Source: Flavobacterium sp. KS-LB2 (lineage in GTDB: Bacteria > Bacteroidota > Bacteroidia > Flavobacteriales > Flavobacteriaceae). From it: a DNA stretch of 64,000 nucleotides. Position numbers and translations under genes: made by a program. The stretch is from positions 3,286,001 through 3,350,000 of the forward strand of contig NZ_CP145904.1 in the NCBI RefSeq assembly GCF_036895565.1, written 5' to 3'. The first letter of the stretch is position 1. Every line of letters starts with the position of its first letter. Under the pieces are notes generated by a model. It searched no databases. It had not been told where the DNA came from and was given only the letters and a program-made list of their open reading frames with translations. Shown piece by piece: positions 19,827-62,491 of this stretch.

Positions 19827-19914
19827 ATGCCCTAGCCCCGATAGCAGTGAAAATCCTTATTGTTTTTGCTGCCAAAAACAATAAGATTGTAACGTATAGC
19901 GGGAAATAGCTCCT
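19827..19914. repeat. Dispersed intergenic element, copy B with perfect inner hairpin
   Basis: The outer ends are CCCTAGCCCCGATAGCAG and TATAGCGGGAAATAGCTCC. The interior holds a perfect 13-bp stem, CTTATTGTTTTTG (19856-19868) and its complement (19873-19885), with a 4-nt CTGC loop. The outer ends match copy C (62415-62491) closely, but the stem sequences of the two copies are unrelated. Confidence 0.8.
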
Positions 19915-32602: not shown

Positions 32603-33532
32603 GTGAGAACTAAAATTAAAAATGCCGTTTCGTCTAAAGTTAATGCTATTGGATTGCCTATTTTAGCTTTGTGCTGGGTTAGTTTTTTTTGGGGAACTAC
32701 TTGGATTGCTTCAAAAGAGGGCGTAAAACACATGCCAGCTTTACAGCTCGCTGCCATTAGACAATTCATTGGCGGATTGCTATATATTTCTTTTTTCCTA
32801 TTCAAAAAAACACCTTGGCCAAAAGGAAAACAATGGAAAACCATTATTATTTTAAGCATCCTTAATTTTGTTTTGAGTAACGGATTAAGCACTTGGGGAG
32901 TGAAATACATCAGTAGCGGACTTGGAGCAATCATTGGCGCTATTGTTCCTTTATGGATTGTAATTATTACTTTTTTTAAGGGAGAACGATTGGCTCGATT
33001 AACGGTTATTGGTTTAATTATTAGTTTTGGTGGCGTTTGCGTTATCTTTTATGATCATTTGAGTGATTTTATGATTCCTGATTTTAGATTTGGGATTATA
33101 TTGTCATTAATAGCTACGTTAACTTGGGCATTTGGCTCGTTATATACAAAGAAAAAAGCAGCTAGTTTTAATCCTTATTTTAGTTTGGGACTGCAAATGT
33201 TTATATCCAGTATTTTAATTTTTGCGTACAATGGAGCAACGGGAACTTCTGTTAGTTTGAGTGCTATTCCAGCTATTTCGTGGTGGTCTATTGCTTATTT
33301 AGTTGTTTTTGGTTCTGTACTTACTTTCATTGCCTTTATCTATGCGCTTCAAAATCTTCCTGCTGAAATAAGCAGTATTTATGCCTATATCAACCCAATT
33401 ATAGCCGTGATTCTAGGTGCTGTGATTTTTGGTGAAGTCCTCAATGCTGCCATTGCAATAGGCGGTGGCGTTACATTGTTTGGATTGTATCTGGTGAATT
33501 ATTCGTTGAGGAAAGGCCGGAAAATAGTATAG
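32603..33532 (+). CDS. EamA/DMT-family transporter
   Basis: The 309-residue protein has ten hydrophobic helices in duplicated halves. It contains FFWGTTWIASKEGVKHMPAL (EamA start), LQLAAIRQFIGGLLY and the second-half LPAEISSIYAYINPIIAVILG. The start is a GTG placed one base after the stop of the epimerase gene, which supports translational coupling. It exports an unknown metabolite. It is a paralogue of the EamA gene at 22055 but diverged. Confidence 0.88.
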   Translation: MRTKIKNAVSSKVNAIGLPILALCWVSFFWGTTWIASKEGVKHMPALQLAAIRQFIGGLLYISFFLFKKTPWPKGKQWKTIIILSILNFVLSNGLSTWGVKYISSGLGAIIGAIVPLWIVIITFFKGERLARLTVIGLIISFGGVCVIFYDHLSDFMIPDFRFGIILSLIATLTWAFGSLYTKKKAASFNPYFSLGLQMFISSILIFAYNGATGTSVSLSAIPAISWWSIAYLVVFGSVLTFIAFIYALQNLPAEISSIYAYINPIIAVILGAVIFGEVLNAAIAIGGGVTLFGLYLVNYSLRKGRKIV

Positions 33533-33693
33533 CAAACTTCTATTTAAAAAATCAAAGTCTTCGCTGTTCAAAGCTATAAATTGTCTTGATTAGTAACCAA
33601 ATACAACAATTATATTTAGTCGTAGTATATAAATAGTAATGCTTTTACAAAATATCACTAAAAGTGGGTATTTTATTTACATTCTATTTTTTA

Positions 33694-33701
33694 TAGGTTT
33701 G
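33694..33701 (+). promoter_or_regulatory. Possible -7 box upstream of the repeat-controlled lipoprotein gene
   Basis: TAGGTTTG matches TAnnTTTG, 37 nt before the ATG at 33738. No -33 TTTG is clear. Confidence 0.35.
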
Positions 33702-33743
33702 TATTTACTTAAGAAGTAATAACTTTTGAATAAAATTATGAAA

Positions 33744-33769
33744 CAAACCACAAACCACAAACCACAAAC
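33744..33769 (+). repeat. 7-bp tandem repeat (CAAACCA)x3 plus partial copy, in start region
   Basis: Three full CAAACCA units at 33744-33764 are followed by CAAAC. The tract begins two codons after an ATG (33738). With the present copy number that ATG runs into a TAA at 33783. Removing one 7-bp unit joins the ATG in frame to a normal lipoprotein signal peptide, and adding two units would also restore the phase. The unit length is not a multiple of three, so slippage would switch the frame. Confidence 0.85.
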
Positions 33770-33807
33770 TAAAAAACTACATTAATAAGTTACTACTCTT
33801 ATTTGTT

Positions 33808-35715
33808 GTGGCCTTTACGCTGAGTAATTGCACTCAAGATACTTTAGACAAAGATGAAAACTCTACTATTGAAGCTTCAAAAAATGAAATCTCATTCAAA
33901 GAGTTTAAAAACAAAACTGGATTAAAAAATTTTAAAAAAACCATTAGTTTACCAGGAGAATCTCTAAACGACCAAGCAAAAAAAACTGGTCAAAATCATA
34001 GCGTTTTAAATGATTTTAATATTGATACTACTTATATTAAACAATGTATAATACAAAATAAAACGACATACACTTTTAAAATTATTCCAAAAATAATTAC
34101 CAGAAATAGTATTTTTAATCTTGTCGTGTATAATAAGGATGGCGTTTGGGAGACATCAATCATCGAAATGATACCTACAAAACAAAATTTAAAAGACCTT
34201 ATTACAGGTAATACAAAACAATTTAGAGGTAAAATGAGACTTGTTTATCAGTCAACTCAAAATCAAAAAAACAGCACTAAATTATCAGAAAGAGCGTCAG
34301 ATATAGGTACCGGCTACACTACCATTTTTGTGACTGGAAATAGGCATTGCACACGTGACGGAGATTGCTTAAGCGGCATCTGTGACAACTGTAATCGCTG
34401 TGTAGACTATTACGCTTTTAGAGTACCTGTACAAGGTGAAGCTGTAGAAGCTCTTGTAGAATCTCCAAATTTTGGATCTCAAGGTGGTGGTGGAAATGGC
34501 GTTAATTTAACTGATCCTAGCGGTTATGTTATAGACCCTAACTTATTTGATTTAACTGACCCAAGAGCTTATCTTATGCTACAAAAGGCAGAGTACGCTG
34601 CAGCATTTTGGGCTGAACTTCCAGATACTTTAAAAACATGGGCAGTTGATAATGTAGATCAATACACTACTATTCTTAATTTATATTTAAATAATGTTAC
34701 GCCAGAAAATAAAGTTATTGCTATGGAGCAAATCAATTTAAGTTTTCAACAAAACAACATTGATGTTTCATGGGAAGAATATAAAGAAATACATGATTAT
34801 CTTACCAATAGTTCAGATCCACTAAAAAATGAAATTGTAAAAAACTGGGTTAGTATAAAAAAAGAACTACTATTAAGACCTGCCCTATTACTTAATATCC
34901 CTTGCAGTGAAATTCCGAAATGGCAAGAACTAATACAGTTCACACCACCTCAATCAGTAAAAAATAAAATACAATCTCTAGATAATCAATCATTATTTAC
35001 TGATTACAAAATTCAATATTTAGAACATGCAAAAGGTGCAGCTATAAATTTAGATTATTTTCCGGTTACAATTAACAGTTTACCAACAAACCCAAATACT
35101 GGGCAAAAATTCTCACCAAAAGAATTTTTAAATTATGTTCGCTTAAAAATTAATTCTTTTGTAGACACTACCATTTCAAGTTTTAGCCCAACAACATTAA
35201 GTACAGGGACTAATGAAACACAATTATGGAACTCTACAAATCCCCTTGGTGCTATCATTCATATTAACATACCCTTACCTGCTGGTGACGGCTCTGTTAT
35301 ATGTTCTGAAACAGACCCTAATCATTGGATTTTTACAACACTTGAAGTCCCTTATTGGCCAGGAAACAACAACAACGACGATGGTATTCATCCTGTGAGT
35401 GGAAATAGGGAGTTCGGCTTAATAGAAAATTCAAACGGCACCTTTACTTTCTACACTCGTGGAGTGGATAGAATGACTGATGGGTTTGACTCAACTATTG
35501 CTGAAAACGGTAACATATTTTTTGGAAGTCCTTTTGCTAAACCTGATATATTGTGGAATAGTTTAAAGACAAAAATATTTAACTTTGTACAAAATAACGG
35601 AGGTAATTCCGTAGCGCCAACAACCTCTCAAAATAAAATTTATAGACCAGATTGGACAAAAGTTCGTCAAGTTTTAAGAGGAGAGGTATCGATAAATAAT
35701 TTAGGCTGTAATTAG
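33808..35715 (+). CDS. Large putative lipoprotein of unknown function, start out of frame (possibly phase-OFF)
   Basis: The open frame codes for 635 residues from a GTG at 33808, but that codon lies inside a signal peptide. Upstream in-frame codons read NYINKLLLLFVVAFTLSNC, a typical lipobox, without any ATG. The nearest ATG (33738) is out of frame because of a 7-bp repeat tract. The mature protein has a charged N-terminus, a Cys-rich patch (CTRDGDCLSGICDNCNRC, about residues 188-205), a Gly-rich hinge (SQGGGGNG), a helical middle and a beta-rich C-terminus with HPVSGNREFGL and FYTRGVDRMTDGFD. I do not recognise a named family. It is probably exposed at the outer membrane. A membrane protein gene follows after 10 nt. 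Confidence 0.75.
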   Translation: MAFTLSNCTQDTLDKDENSTIEASKNEISFKEFKNKTGLKNFKKTISLPGESLNDQAKKTGQNHSVLNDFNIDTTYIKQCIIQNKTTYTFKIIPKIITRNSIFNLVVYNKDGVWETSIIEMIPTKQNLKDLITGNTKQFRGKMRLVYQSTQNQKNSTKLSERASDIGTGYTTIFVTGNRHCTRDGDCLSGICDNCNRCVDYYAFRVPVQGEAVEALVESPNFGSQGGGGNGVNLTDPSGYVIDPNLFDLTDPRAYLMLQKAEYAAAFWAELPDTLKTWAVDNVDQYTTILNLYLNNVTPENKVIAMEQINLSFQQNNIDVSWEEYKEIHDYLTNSSDPLKNEIVKNWVSIKKELLLRPALLLNIPCSEIPKWQELIQFTPPQSVKNKIQSLDNQSLFTDYKIQYLEHAKGAAINLDYFPVTINSLPTNPNTGQKFSPKEFLNYVRLKINSFVDTTISSFSPTTLSTGTNETQLWNSTNPLGAIIHINIPLPAGDGSVICSETDPNHWIFTTLEVPYWPGNNNNDDGIHPVSGNREFGLIENSNGTFTFYTRGVDRMTDGFDSTIAENGNIFFGSPFAKPDILWNSLKTKIFNFVQNNGGNSVAPTTSQNKIYRPDWTKVRQVLRGEVSINNLGCN

Positions 35716-35725
35716 AAATTTGATC

Positions 35726-36196
35726 ATGGAAAAATATATAAATCGTTTAAAAAATACATTTTTAATATTTGGTTGTTTGACTTTGATTTTATTTTTACTG
35801 CACGAAAACAAACTACTTGTTCATGATATTAAGGGCTATCTAATGGCATTTGAAACTATATTGTTTTTTATTTTCATAGTTTCACTATATTCATTCTTTA
35901 TTTTATCAGATATTCAAAAAGACAAATTTATTTATCTGAGTTGGTTCAATTATATTCTACTAATTGCTTCTCTTTTATCTTTTAGCTACTGGGGTATAAT
36001 CTATCAAGATGCATTAGCGCTTCTTTTTCCGGCTTATTTTGCAATTATGACTATAATTAATTTAATAGTAATGTCAATCGTCTATCTAATCAAAAAAACA
36101 GGAGGTCAATATTTTTTTAAAGATTGGATTTTTTTTGTGGGCTTGATCGTTTTTTATATTGCCTATGGTATTATAAACAGGGAAATTAATTCTTAA
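35726..36196 (+). CDS. Five-helix membrane protein behind the lipoprotein gene
   Basis: The 156-residue product is almost wholly hydrophobic, with segments near residues 10-25, 40-60, 72-90, 95-116 and 126-145. It has Lys-rich loops and a short polar tail. The ATG at 35726 is preferred over a TTG at 35720. No family is recognised. It lies 10 nt after the lipoprotein gene and so is probably co-transcribed; a partner or immunity-type role is conceivable but only from position. Confidence 0.75.
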   Translation: MEKYINRLKNTFLIFGCLTLILFLLHENKLLVHDIKGYLMAFETILFFIFIVSLYSFFILSDIQKDKFIYLSWFNYILLIASLLSFSYWGIIYQDALALLFPAYFAIMTIINLIVMSIVYLIKKTGGQYFFKDWIFFVGLIVFYIAYGIINREINS

Positions 36197-36446: not shown

Positions 36447-38510
36447 TTACCAGATTCTTACACGCTTTTCAGGTGCAATATACATTCCGTCAGTTGCTTT
36501 GATATCGAACGCTTTATAGAACGTATCTATATTTTGCAAAGGAACATAAGCACGATACATTCCTGGAGAATGCGGGTCTGTTTTTACTTGATTTTTCAAG
36601 GCTTCATCACGCATTTTTGAACGCCAGATAGTTGACCAAGAAATAAAGAAACGTTGTTCTGGAGTATATCCGTCGATTAATCCCGGATTTCCGTTTTCTT
36701 TCAAATACAATTGTAAACCATCATAAGCAGCATTTACACCACCTAAATCTCCAATATTTTCACCCAATGTAAATTTACCATCTACGAAAGTTCCTGGAAT
36801 TGGTTCCAACGCACTGTACTGAGCAGCAAGTGCTCCAGTCAAAGCTGAGAATTGTTTCAAATCTTCGGCAGTCCACCAGTCTACTAAGTTTCCATCAGCA
36901 TTGTAACGGGAACCTGAATCGTCAAAACCATGAGATATTTCATGCCCAATAACCCCACCGATTCCACCATAATTTACGGCTTCATCCGCTTGGTAATTGT
37001 AAAAAGGCGGTTGCAAAATAGCTGCCGGAAATACAATTTCATTGTTTGATGGATTGTAATACGCGTTTACCGTTTGTGGTGACATTCCCCATCTTTCTTT
37101 ATCAACAGGCTTTTTCAACTCGGCTAAGTTTTCTTCAAAACGCCATTTTGCCATGTTTTTAGCATTTTCAAAATAGGTTCCACCTTCTTCTGGACTTTTA
37201 ATCGTCAAGGCTGAATAATCTTTCCATTTGTCAGGATAACCAATTTTAATTCTTGATTTATGCAATTTAGCAAGCGCGCTTACTTTTGTTTCTGCAGACA
37301 TCCAAGATAAATTATTGATTCTGTTTTCGAAAGCCAAGAAGATGTTTTTAATCATTTTTTCAGCTTTTACTTTGGCTTCAGCCGGAAATTTTTTCTCTAC
37401 ATATAATTTCCCTAAAGCTTCTCCAACTGCTCCATTGATGGTTTGAAGTGCTCTTTCATCACGTGGTCTCTGGCTTACAGCACCCGTTAACGTTCTTCCG
37501 TAAAACTCCCAGTTGGCGTTTTCAATTTCAGTTGATAATTGACTAGAAGCTCTGTTCAACAAACTCCAACGCATGTAGGCTTTCCATTCGTCTACTTTGT
37601 TTTCTTTCAACATACTTTCTAGCGCCGTCATGTATTTAGGTTGCGATACAATCACGGTATCTACTTTTGTTAGTCCAATTTTTGTGAAATAATTATTCCA
37701 ATTGATAGACGGAGTTAATTTACTCAATTCAGCCAAAGTCATTGGATTGTATGACTTACGACGGTCTCTACGTTCTACTCTATCCAATCTTGGTTTAGAC
37801 ATTGCAGTTTCAAGAGCTAGTATTTTCTCCGCATTTAGTTTGGCAACAGCCGGTTTATCACCTAGATATTGCAACATTTTAGCAACGTGTAAAACATATT
37901 TTGCACGTTTCTCTTTAGAATCGGCATCATCAGAAACATAATAATCTCTATCTGGCAAACCTACGCCACCTGGACCTAAATTAATCACGTTTCTACTACT
38001 GTTCTTTGCATCTGTTCCTACACCAGCACCCATAAATCCGATGCCACCAAAAGGTTCCATTTCAATTAATAATGCTTCTAAATCTTTAGCGTTTTTAACT
38101 GCGTCAATTTTCTTAAGATACGGTTTCAAAGGAGCAATACCCATCTTATTTCTTCCTACAGTATCTAAAATAGATTTGTATAAATTAATGGCTTTCCCTT
38201 GGTCTGTATTCGATTTGTAGCTTGGATTGGTAGTGGCTTCTTTTAAAATTGCCAATGCATCTGCATCTGTTCTTTGACGCAATTCGTCAAAACTACCCCA
38301 ACGAGTTCTGTCTCCTGGAATTTCCGTATTGTCCAACCAAGTTCCATTCACATAACGAAAGAAATCGTTACTTGGTTTCACGTTTTTATCCATGTAATTC
38401 ACATTGATTCCCGGTTCTTTAGCTGCCGGAGCATTCTGAGCTTGACTCACCGCAAAACCCATGATTGCGGGAATCACAAAAAGCAATTGCTTATTGCTGG
38501 TTTTTTTCAT
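36447..38510 (-). CDS. pepO: M13-family metallopeptidase (neprilysin/PepO-like)
   Basis: The 687-residue protein has a signal peptide (about 1-24, ending VSQAQ). The M13 N-terminal domain starts with NDFFRYVNGTWLDNTEIPGDR, and the catalytic domain has zinc motif VIGHEISHGFDDSG (HExxH), the third ligand Glu in FTLGENIGDLGGV, NAYYNPSNNEIVFPAAIL and the final RVRIW (usually C-x-V/I-W). It is a periplasmic or surface zinc endopeptidase for short peptides. It is transcribed alone from a TAGCTTTG box upstream. Confidence 0.93.
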   Translation of the reverse strand: MKKTSNKQLLFVIPAIMGFAVSQAQNAPAAKEPGINVNYMDKNVKPSNDFFRYVNGTWLDNTEIPGDRTRWGSFDELRQRTDADALAILKEATTNPSYKSNTDQGKAINLYKSILDTVGRNKMGIAPLKPYLKKIDAVKNAKDLEALLIEMEPFGGIGFMGAGVGTDAKNSSRNVINLGPGGVGLPDRDYYVSDDADSKEKRAKYVLHVAKMLQYLGDKPAVAKLNAEKILALETAMSKPRLDRVERRDRRKSYNPMTLAELSKLTPSINWNNYFTKIGLTKVDTVIVSQPKYMTALESMLKENKVDEWKAYMRWSLLNRASSQLSTEIENANWEFYGRTLTGAVSQRPRDERALQTINGAVGEALGKLYVEKKFPAEAKVKAEKMIKNIFLAFENRINNLSWMSAETKVSALAKLHKSRIKIGYPDKWKDYSALTIKSPEEGGTYFENAKNMAKWRFEENLAELKKPVDKERWGMSPQTVNAYYNPSNNEIVFPAAILQPPFYNYQADEAVNYGGIGGVIGHEISHGFDDSGSRYNADGNLVDWWTAEDLKQFSALTGALAAQYSALEPIPGTFVDGKFTLGENIGDLGGVNAAYDGLQLYLKENGNPGLIDGYTPEQRFFISWSTIWRSKMRDEALKNQVKTDPHSPGMYRAYVPLQNIDTFYKAFDIKATDGMYIAPEKRVRIW

Positions 38511-62411: not shown

Positions 62412-62414
62412 TTT

Positions 62415-62491
62415 TAGCCCCGATAGCAGCGGTATCCTTTTATGTCCGCCGCAGCGGACATAAAAGATATAGCGGATAGCGGGATTAGCTC
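62415..62491. repeat. Dispersed intergenic element, copy C with perfect inner hairpin
   Basis: The ends are AGCCCCGATAGCAG and TAGCGGATAGCGGGATTAGCTC. The interior is a perfect 13-bp stem, CTTTTATGTCCGC (62437-62449) and its complement (62454-62466), with a CGCA loop. The layout equals copy B, with a different stem sequence. Confidence 0.8.

What the first reader, a model, noticed from the sequence alone, without database searches (positions are those of the whole stretch)
33738..33830. A 7-bp repeat tract puts a lipoprotein signal peptide out of frame; one unit fewer would restore it
Seen: an ATG at 33738 is followed by (CAAACCA)x3 plus CAAAC and runs into a TAA at 33783. In another frame the sequence reads an excellent lipoprotein signal peptide (KLLLLFVVAFTLSNC) joined to a 1.9-kb open frame without any upstream ATG. 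Removing exactly one 7-bp unit links the ATG to that signal peptide in frame (M-K-Q-T-T-N-H-K-L-K-N...), because a change of -7 moves the phase by the required amount; +14 would too. A non-triplet short tandem repeat in the first codons is the classic arrangement for slipped-strand phase variation of surface proteins. Inference: this gene is phase-variable and caught OFF, or has recently been disrupted. The long intact downstream frame argues against old decay.
Basis: partly seen in the sequence, partly recalled or inferred. Interest (0 to 1): 0.85.

Follow-up and report, generated by a model that had tools for sequence, protein, structure and literature searches.

The report
Switchable surface toxin gene in Flavobacterium
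A short DNA stutter right after the start signal has put a probable bacterial surface-toxin gene out of frame, and relatives carry different stutters at the same place, so this weapon family is probably switched on and off at random from cell to cell.

Summary
A perfect 7-bp repeat (33743-33769, 3.9 copies) follows ATG 33738, whose frame ends at 33783; a 1.97-kb frame with a lipoprotein signal peptide lies in another frame, with no start codon before GTG 33808.

Of 31 homologous loci examined, 8 carry a non-triplet repeat before the lipobox, of very different kinds (7-mers, (GAAA)n, a 5-mer, (AC)n, poly-G). Five more loci were found by repeat or promoter; 12 of these 13 are out of frame. At the syntenic locus of another species the tract is twice as long.

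The gene looks like a polymorphic toxin: a conserved lipoprotein N-terminus, a swappable C-terminus (Tae4 amidase in relatives) and a downstream membrane protein that is probably its immunity. The syntenic relative carries another C-terminus and keeps a remnant of this one beside the homologue of its neighbour gene.

Also found: a 20-bp promoter element (33653-33672) at fixed spacing from a Flavobacterium -7 box, present in 94 of 329 genomes of the genus.

Switching within a population, surface display, toxicity and immunity were not tested. Verdict: a phase-variable, probably antibacterial, lipoprotein polymorphic toxin caught OFF; new variant of a known kind.

The parts
33653..33672 (+). conserved 20-bp promoter element TATCACTAAAAGTGGGTATT
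   Evidence: Identical before the second repeat locus of this genome; 7 sites in the genome at up to 3 mismatches, 0 for the reversed pattern; in 94 of 329 genus genomes.
33694..33701 (+). -7 box TAGGTTTG (TAnnTTTG), 21 nt after the element
   Evidence: Sequence; same spacing in 34 of 156 sites with an exact TAnnTTTG; consensus from PMC9723704, passages.
33738..33785 (+). ATG and its short frame (15 codons, TAA 33783-33785) in the present, OFF, state
33743..33769 (+). 7-bp tandem repeat, 3.9 copies (phase-variation tract)
33742..35715 (+). open frame of the lipoprotein (stop to stop); lipobox Cys codon 33829-33831
33829..34818 (+). conserved N-terminal part of the mature lipoprotein
   Evidence: Matches in 26 of 398 genus genomes to the query 33781-34800; relatives with the same part carry other C-termini.
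34819..35712 (+). C-terminal domain, putative toxin; predicted helix-grip (START/Bet v 1-like) fold
   Evidence: In 12 of 398 genus genomes; model pLDDT 88.4, pTM 0.88; fold comparison.
35726..36196 (+). downstream membrane protein, five hydrophobic segments; candidate immunity gene with its own ATG
   Evidence: Follows a homologous C-terminus in G036 and G295; hydrophobicity.
32603..33532 (+). upstream flank: EamA transporter, conserved in synteny with G036
36447..38510 (-). downstream flank: M13 peptidase, conserved in synteny with G036

Best explanation
This is a contingency locus. The repeat just inside the reading frame gains or loses units when DNA strands slip, so the ATG is in frame with the lipoprotein in some cells and out of frame in others; the sequenced genome is OFF. 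When ON, the gene makes a lipid-anchored, probably surface-exposed protein whose conserved N-terminal part presents a swappable C-terminal toxin domain to neighbouring bacteria. The membrane protein encoded 10 nt downstream, with its own start, is probably the immunity protein. A genus-wide 20-bp promoter element adds a second layer of control. Shown by sequence comparison: the repeat and frames, repeats at homologous starts, the different tract at a syntenic locus, C-terminal replacement there, linkage of C-terminus and downstream gene in two other genomes, and the fixed spacing of the element to a -7 box. Inferred: slippage within a population, surface display, toxicity, immunity, and a regulator binding the element.
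For: 8 of 31 homologous loci carry non-triplet repeats of unrelated kinds before the lipobox; with five more loci, 13 in all, 12 are out of frame and 1 in frame. Second locus of the same design in the same genome. Tract 27 nt against 54 nt at the syntenic locus. In-frame homologues P0013, P0040, P0043. No conserved alternative start. Tae4 C-termini on the same N-terminus. Syntenic C-terminal replacement with a remnant of the window-type C-terminus and the homologue of the downstream gene left behind.
Against: One in frame of 13 is fewer than the third expected (P 0.039, relatedness not corrected). 23 of 31 homologous loci have no repeat. G036 has TTG in place of ATG. The C-terminus matches no known toxin family and its predicted fold is that of ligand-binding proteins. 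Of 12 genomes with the C-terminus only 3 have a match to the downstream protein, and 3 genomes have that protein without the C-terminus in the regions compared.
Confidence: 0.72

Rival explanations
1. Decay: the gene is a recent or old pseudogene here and the repeat is incidental.
For: The gene is out of frame in the only genome of this species at hand, and 12 of 13 repeat-bearing loci are out of frame.
Against: The large frame is intact over 657 codons; unrelated repeats sit at homologous starts in other species; a second locus of the same design is in the genome.
Confidence: 0.12
2. The true start lies after the repeat (GTG 33808 or a non-standard codon such as ATT 33781), so the repeat is in the leader and does not switch the frame.
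For: P0001, 95% identical, was called from the equivalent of GTG 33808, and several other homologues were called from inside the signal peptide.
Against: A start at GTG 33808 removes about half of the signal peptide; in-frame start codons after the repeat are at scattered positions in the 12 out-of-frame loci, and some have none before the Cys. GTG 33808 has G at -3, ATG 33738 has A at -3 and -6, which favour initiation in F. johnsoniae (PMC6847099, passages); ATG 33738 lacks A at -12 and -13, which that paper also lists.
Confidence: 0.08
3. Phase-variable, but not a toxin: a surface lipoprotein with a ligand-binding C-terminus, the downstream gene being a partner and not immunity.
For: Helix-grip fold; no toxin family match; the downstream protein is missing in 9 of 12 genomes with the C-terminus.
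Against: The same N-terminus carries Tae4 amidase domains above Pfam's cut-off in P0013, P0016 and P0017; the C-terminus is exchanged at a syntenic site with the old piece left beside the homologue of its neighbour gene.
Confidence: 0.15
4. Programmed translational frameshifting on the A-rich repeat lets the ribosome reach the lipoprotein frame, without DNA switching.
For: Nearly all repeat-bearing loci are out of frame (12 of 13).
Against: Both wrong frames occur (7 and 5 loci) and the repeats have no shared slip sequence.
Confidence: 0.04

Closest known systems
Simple-sequence-repeat contingency genes of Neisseria, Haemophilus and Campylobacter (e.g. PMC5320596, PMC8437040, listings only)
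   Same: Non-triplet repeat at the 5' end of a surface-protein gene; unit number sets the frame.
   Different: Here the genes look like interbacterial toxins of Flavobacterium, and the repeat kinds differ from locus to locus at one position.
Polymorphic toxin systems (PMC3482391, passages), including lipobox-bearing APD1/APD2 proteins of Amoebophilus
   Same: Conserved N-terminal part, variable C-terminal domain, neighbouring immunity gene, left-over cassettes; lipobox anchoring in APD proteins.
   Different: The passages read do not mention phase variation (0 occurrences of the term in the text held); APD proteins are predicted to act on the eukaryotic host.
SitA lipoprotein toxins of Myxococcus (PMC5562445, PMC8546572, passages)
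   Same: Lipoproteins with polymorphic C-terminal toxin domains and cognate immunity genes downstream.
   Different: SitA toxins are delivered by TraA-dependent outer-membrane exchange with sitB upstream; here an EamA transporter gene lies upstream and delivery is unknown. In the passages read, phase variation occurs only in a reference title.
BSAP surface-lipoprotein pore-forming toxins of Bacteroidales (PMC12853789, passages)
   Same: Antibacterial lipoprotein toxins of the same phylum displayed at the surface.
   Different: BSAPs have MACPF domains; no Pfam MACPF match was found here. No C-terminal cassette exchange is described in the passages read.
FSD adhesin genes of Ornithobacterium hominis (PMC13183296, passages)
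   Same: Variable surface-gene family of a member of the same order (order recalled) with a putative phase-variation mechanism.
   Different: Adhesins, not toxin-immunity loci.

Membership tests
SSR phase-variable (contingency) gene | Non-triplet tandem repeat within the start of the coding frame | tested here: met
   33743-33769, 3.9 x 7 bp, 2 nt after ATG 33738.
SSR phase-variable (contingency) gene | Tract length differs between related alleles | tested here: met
   27 nt here, 54 nt at the syntenic locus of another species.
SSR phase-variable (contingency) gene | In-frame and out-of-frame alleles exist within one species or population | tested here: inconclusive
   In-frame homologues exist in other species or metagenomes, but no pair from one species was found; nearest 88% identity. 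No reads available.
Polymorphic toxin system | Conserved N-terminal part joined to different C-terminal domains | tested here: met
   Tae4 in P0013, P0016, P0017; replacement at the syntenic locus.
Polymorphic toxin system | Cognate immunity gene next to the C-terminus | tested here: inconclusive
   The downstream protein is linked to the homologous C-terminus in G036 and G295; 9 of 12 genomes with the C-terminus have no match to it.
Polymorphic toxin system | Left-over C-terminus and immunity cassettes near the locus | tested here: met
   Remnant of the window-type C-terminus, homologue of its neighbour and a Tae4-like remnant in G036.
Polymorphic toxin system | Toxic C-terminal domain | not testable with these tools
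   No family match for this C-terminus.
Surface lipoprotein with export signal (LES) | Signal peptide, lipobox Cys and an acidic export signal after it | tested here: inconclusive
   Signal peptide and Cys are present; TQDTL after the Cys is only loosely like SDDFE of F. johnsoniae (PMC5080379, passages).
Type VI secretion effector | Type VI secretion system in the genome | tested here: inconclusive
   No VipB (PF05943) match in G000; only 1 of 14 control genomes, E. coli, matched, so sensitivity for Bacteroidetes systems is unknown.
SitA | TraA-dependent delivery and sitB upstream | not tested
   No TraA search was made; the upstream gene is an EamA transporter.

The most novel reading that the evidence does not exclude
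A genus-wide weapon system in Flavobacterium: C-terminus-swapping surface-lipoprotein toxins switched at random by repeats that arose several times at the same position of the gene, under a shared undescribed promoter element, while the immunity gene keeps its own start. A population would then be mostly disarmed but immune, with a few armed cells: bet-hedging or division of labour in conflict between bacteria.
Probability: 0.4. Interest if true: 0.85.

Novelty: new variant of a known kind. Interest (0 to 1): 0.72.

Why it matters
Repeat-driven phase variation is classically described for surface antigens and modification enzymes of host-adapted pathogens, and in Bacteroidetes mainly as DNA inversion (both recalled). 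Here it seems to govern an interbacterial toxin family of the genus Flavobacterium, and repeats of unrelated units sit at one position of homologous genes, which is natural evidence for selection on switching. Because the probable immunity gene has its own start, the system makes a clear prediction (an immune but unarmed majority) that tract counting and competition can test. The 20-bp element gives a handle on a regulon that also precedes other kinds of genes.

Tried and rejected
Start at GTG 33808: rejected as the main start. Incidental frameshift: not favoured because homologous starts carry repeats. Programmed frameshifting: not favoured because both wrong frames occur. Type VI secretion as delivery route: one sheath model found nothing in this genome, with doubtful sensitivity; left open. 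RNA element at the start: no Rfam family at its gathering score between 33530 and 33850; the one match at E 0.9 is far below its cut-off. Named genomes: two genome-contig scans returned no relative, so names rest on equal contig lengths. No family of NCBIfam above cut-off, and none of PADLOC, for the window protein; Pfam gave nothing above cut-off for it or for the downstream protein. The reversed-pattern control of the 7-mer search is uninformative, as the degenerate pattern also fits many arrays backwards. Of the 30 array loci fetched, 5 lie at a start of this kind (L075, L081, L090, L093, L097); many of the others are not next to an ATG or a lipoprotein frame. A search for the element by its letters gave one unrelated paper. 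Other toxin folds are not excluded.

Full report
OBSERVATION. The finding is exact. ATG 33738 is followed by a perfect 7-bp tandem repeat (33743-33769, 3.9 copies) and its frame ends after 15 codons at TAA 33783. The long frame 33742-35715 codes a lipoprotein signal peptide with the lipobox Cys at 33829-33831 and has no ATG, GTG or TTG before GTG 33808. No 7-mer run of 20 nt or more arose in 100 Markov sequences made from the window. In 464 kb of this genome (window plus 20 stretches, 13.6%) two ATG-adjacent non-triplet repeats precede a frame of at least 100 aa: this one and a second, at G000:C1:3382550, which is again an ATG, a 7-mer array and an out-of-frame lipoprotein.

ORGANISM. The window lies in a single-contig genome of 3,408,714 bp. 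The species is not known.

HOMOLOGOUS STARTS. A query of the N-terminal part has matches in 26 of 398 genus genomes, this one included. I examined 31 loci (dropped: L008 and L009 as duplicates, L006 with the C-terminus only, L030 and L031 as doubtful). In 8 of 31 a non-triplet repeat (A and T runs not counted) lies within 130 nt before the lipobox: ACAAACC x3.9 and x7.7, ACAAAGC x5.0, AAACCAA x4.4, GAAA x7.8, ACAAA x4.2, AC x11.5 and ten G. The other 23 have an in-frame ATG before the Cys and no such repeat. A repeat-first search (44 of 398 genomes; 30 loci fetched) and an element-first census added L118 (this genome), L075 (G254), L097 (G154) and two loci in G223 about 3.7 kb apart with (AAAC)n. 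Of these 13 loci, 12 are out of frame with the start codon before the repeat (offset 1 in 7, offset 2 in 5) and 1 (G330) is in frame. With one third expected in frame, 1 or fewer of 13 has P 0.039 (relatedness not corrected); OFF may be favoured, which the simplest model does not explain. In G036 the codon is TTG.

WHICH START. In the 12 out-of-frame loci the in-frame start codons after the repeat are at scattered positions, inside the signal peptide or beyond the Cys. ATG 33738 has A at -3 and -6, which favour initiation in F. johnsoniae, but not at -12 and -13 (PMC6847099, passages); GTG 33808 has G at -3. Of 116 proteins returned by two searches and read at their N-termini, P0013, P0040 and P0043 start with a repeat-coded stretch in frame with the signal peptide, and at least 13 start inside the signal peptide, as gene callers do when the ATG is out of frame. 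No in-frame and out-of-frame pair from one species was found; the nearest, P0044 and P0048, is 88% identical.

WHAT THE GENE IS. Proteins with the same N-terminus end in a Tae4 amidase domain above Pfam's cut-off (P0013, P0016, P0017), and the window's C-terminus occurs behind other N-termini. In the family of the second locus, P0040, P0043 and P0046 are each 92-95% identical to P0060 over 312 residues and differ after that, and P0071 ends in a Peptidase_M91 domain just above cut-off (27 bits against 25). The clearest case is the syntenic locus of G036. Between homologues of the EamA gene (78%) and the M13 peptidase gene (85%) lie the repeat-bearing lipoprotein N-terminus (65%) with a Tae4 C-terminus, a small lipoprotein-like gene, a remnant of the window-type C-terminus (78% over 89 residues), the homologue of the window's downstream gene (61%), a Tae4-like remnant (by eye) and a further small protein. 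This is the signature of C-terminal replacement with old cassettes left behind. The tract is 27 nt here and 54 nt there.

PROMOTER ELEMENT. The 20-bp sequence at 33653-33672 recurs before the second locus and, with up to 2 mismatches in 17, before the repeat genes of G036, G128, G315, G201, G254 and G154. Among the 31 loci, 5 of 8 with a repeat and 0 of 23 without have it (at most 3 mismatches; Fisher P 0.0003, relatedness not corrected). This genome has 7 sites at up to 3 mismatches, 6 of them at up to 1, and none for the reversed pattern. In the genus 94 of 329 genomes have it, with no reversed match in the rows listed. Only part of the places was listed; from those I took 118 regions besides the loci, giving 156 distinct sites. 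Their profile is AAWATCACTAAAAGTGGGTATTGT followed at fixed spacing by TA-nn-TTT; an exact TAnnTTTG begins 21 nt after the 19-bp core in 34 of 156. TAnnTTTG is the -7 box of the primary sigma factor (PMC9723704, passages). So the element belongs to a promoter, probably as a regulator site or an extended -33 region. By a mechanical rule 125 of 156 sites precede a frame of at least 60 aa; the largest groups are a protein of about 100 aa (22), a membrane protein of about 105 aa (17) and delta-60-repeat-like proteins (14, name recalled). Of 161 sites (six repeat loci added to the set scanned), 10 have a repeat followed by a frame of at least 60 aa, and by eye all 10 are lipoproteins of this kind. 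Repeats are thus not a general trait of genes with the element.

MECHANISM. Best explanation: slipped-strand contingency control of a lipoprotein polymorphic toxin, layered on promoter control. Shown by comparison: frames, repeats at homologous starts, different tract at a syntenic site, C-terminal replacement, linkage, promoter element. Inferred: slippage in one population, surface display (TQDTL after the Cys is only loosely like the SDDFE signal of PMC5080379, passages), toxicity, immunity, delivery.

NOVELTY. Repeat-based phase variation, polymorphic toxins and lipoprotein toxins are each known. Ten paper searches were made; no listing named a phase-variable polymorphic toxin. One search found 22 papers with both terms and listed 20; I opened six of them and read passages only, so the other 16 were not opened. 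Other papers were also read in passages only. Within that limit the combination, the unrelated repeats at one position and the promoter element appear new. I rate it a new variant of a known kind.

Noticed in passing
window 33653-33672; L119-L155; L156-L273: A 20-bp element at fixed spacing from a TAnnTTTG box occurs in 94 of 329 Flavobacterium genomes before many kinds of genes; the regulator is unknown.
   Followed up: partly
L118 2550-4916 (G000:C1:3382550): Second repeat-bearing out-of-frame lipoprotein in the same genome, with an HEVIH motif in the C-terminal part (by eye; weak M35 match below cut-off) and a small protein with a signal-peptide-like start downstream.
   Followed up: partly
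P0001 against window 34819-35712: The closest relative has an identical C-terminus (100%) but a less conserved N-terminal part (92% over the aligned part), as if the C-terminus had been exchanged recently.
   Followed up: no
L234 and L235 (G223:C35): Two lipoprotein genes about 3.7 kb apart, each with the promoter element and its own (AAAC)n tract of different length (8.5 and 11.2 units).
   Followed up: no
L153 (G272:C1): The element precedes a VgrG-like gene (recognised by eye, no family search), hinting at a link with type VI secretion in some species.
   Followed up: no
window 19830-19910 and 62412-62490: Two Flavo-1 RNA elements (RF01705) above gathering score.
   Followed up: no
L077, L080, L083 and others: Long 7-mer arrays (AAACCCA, AAACCCC, AAACCAA types) away from starts of this kind in several genomes.
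   Followed up: no
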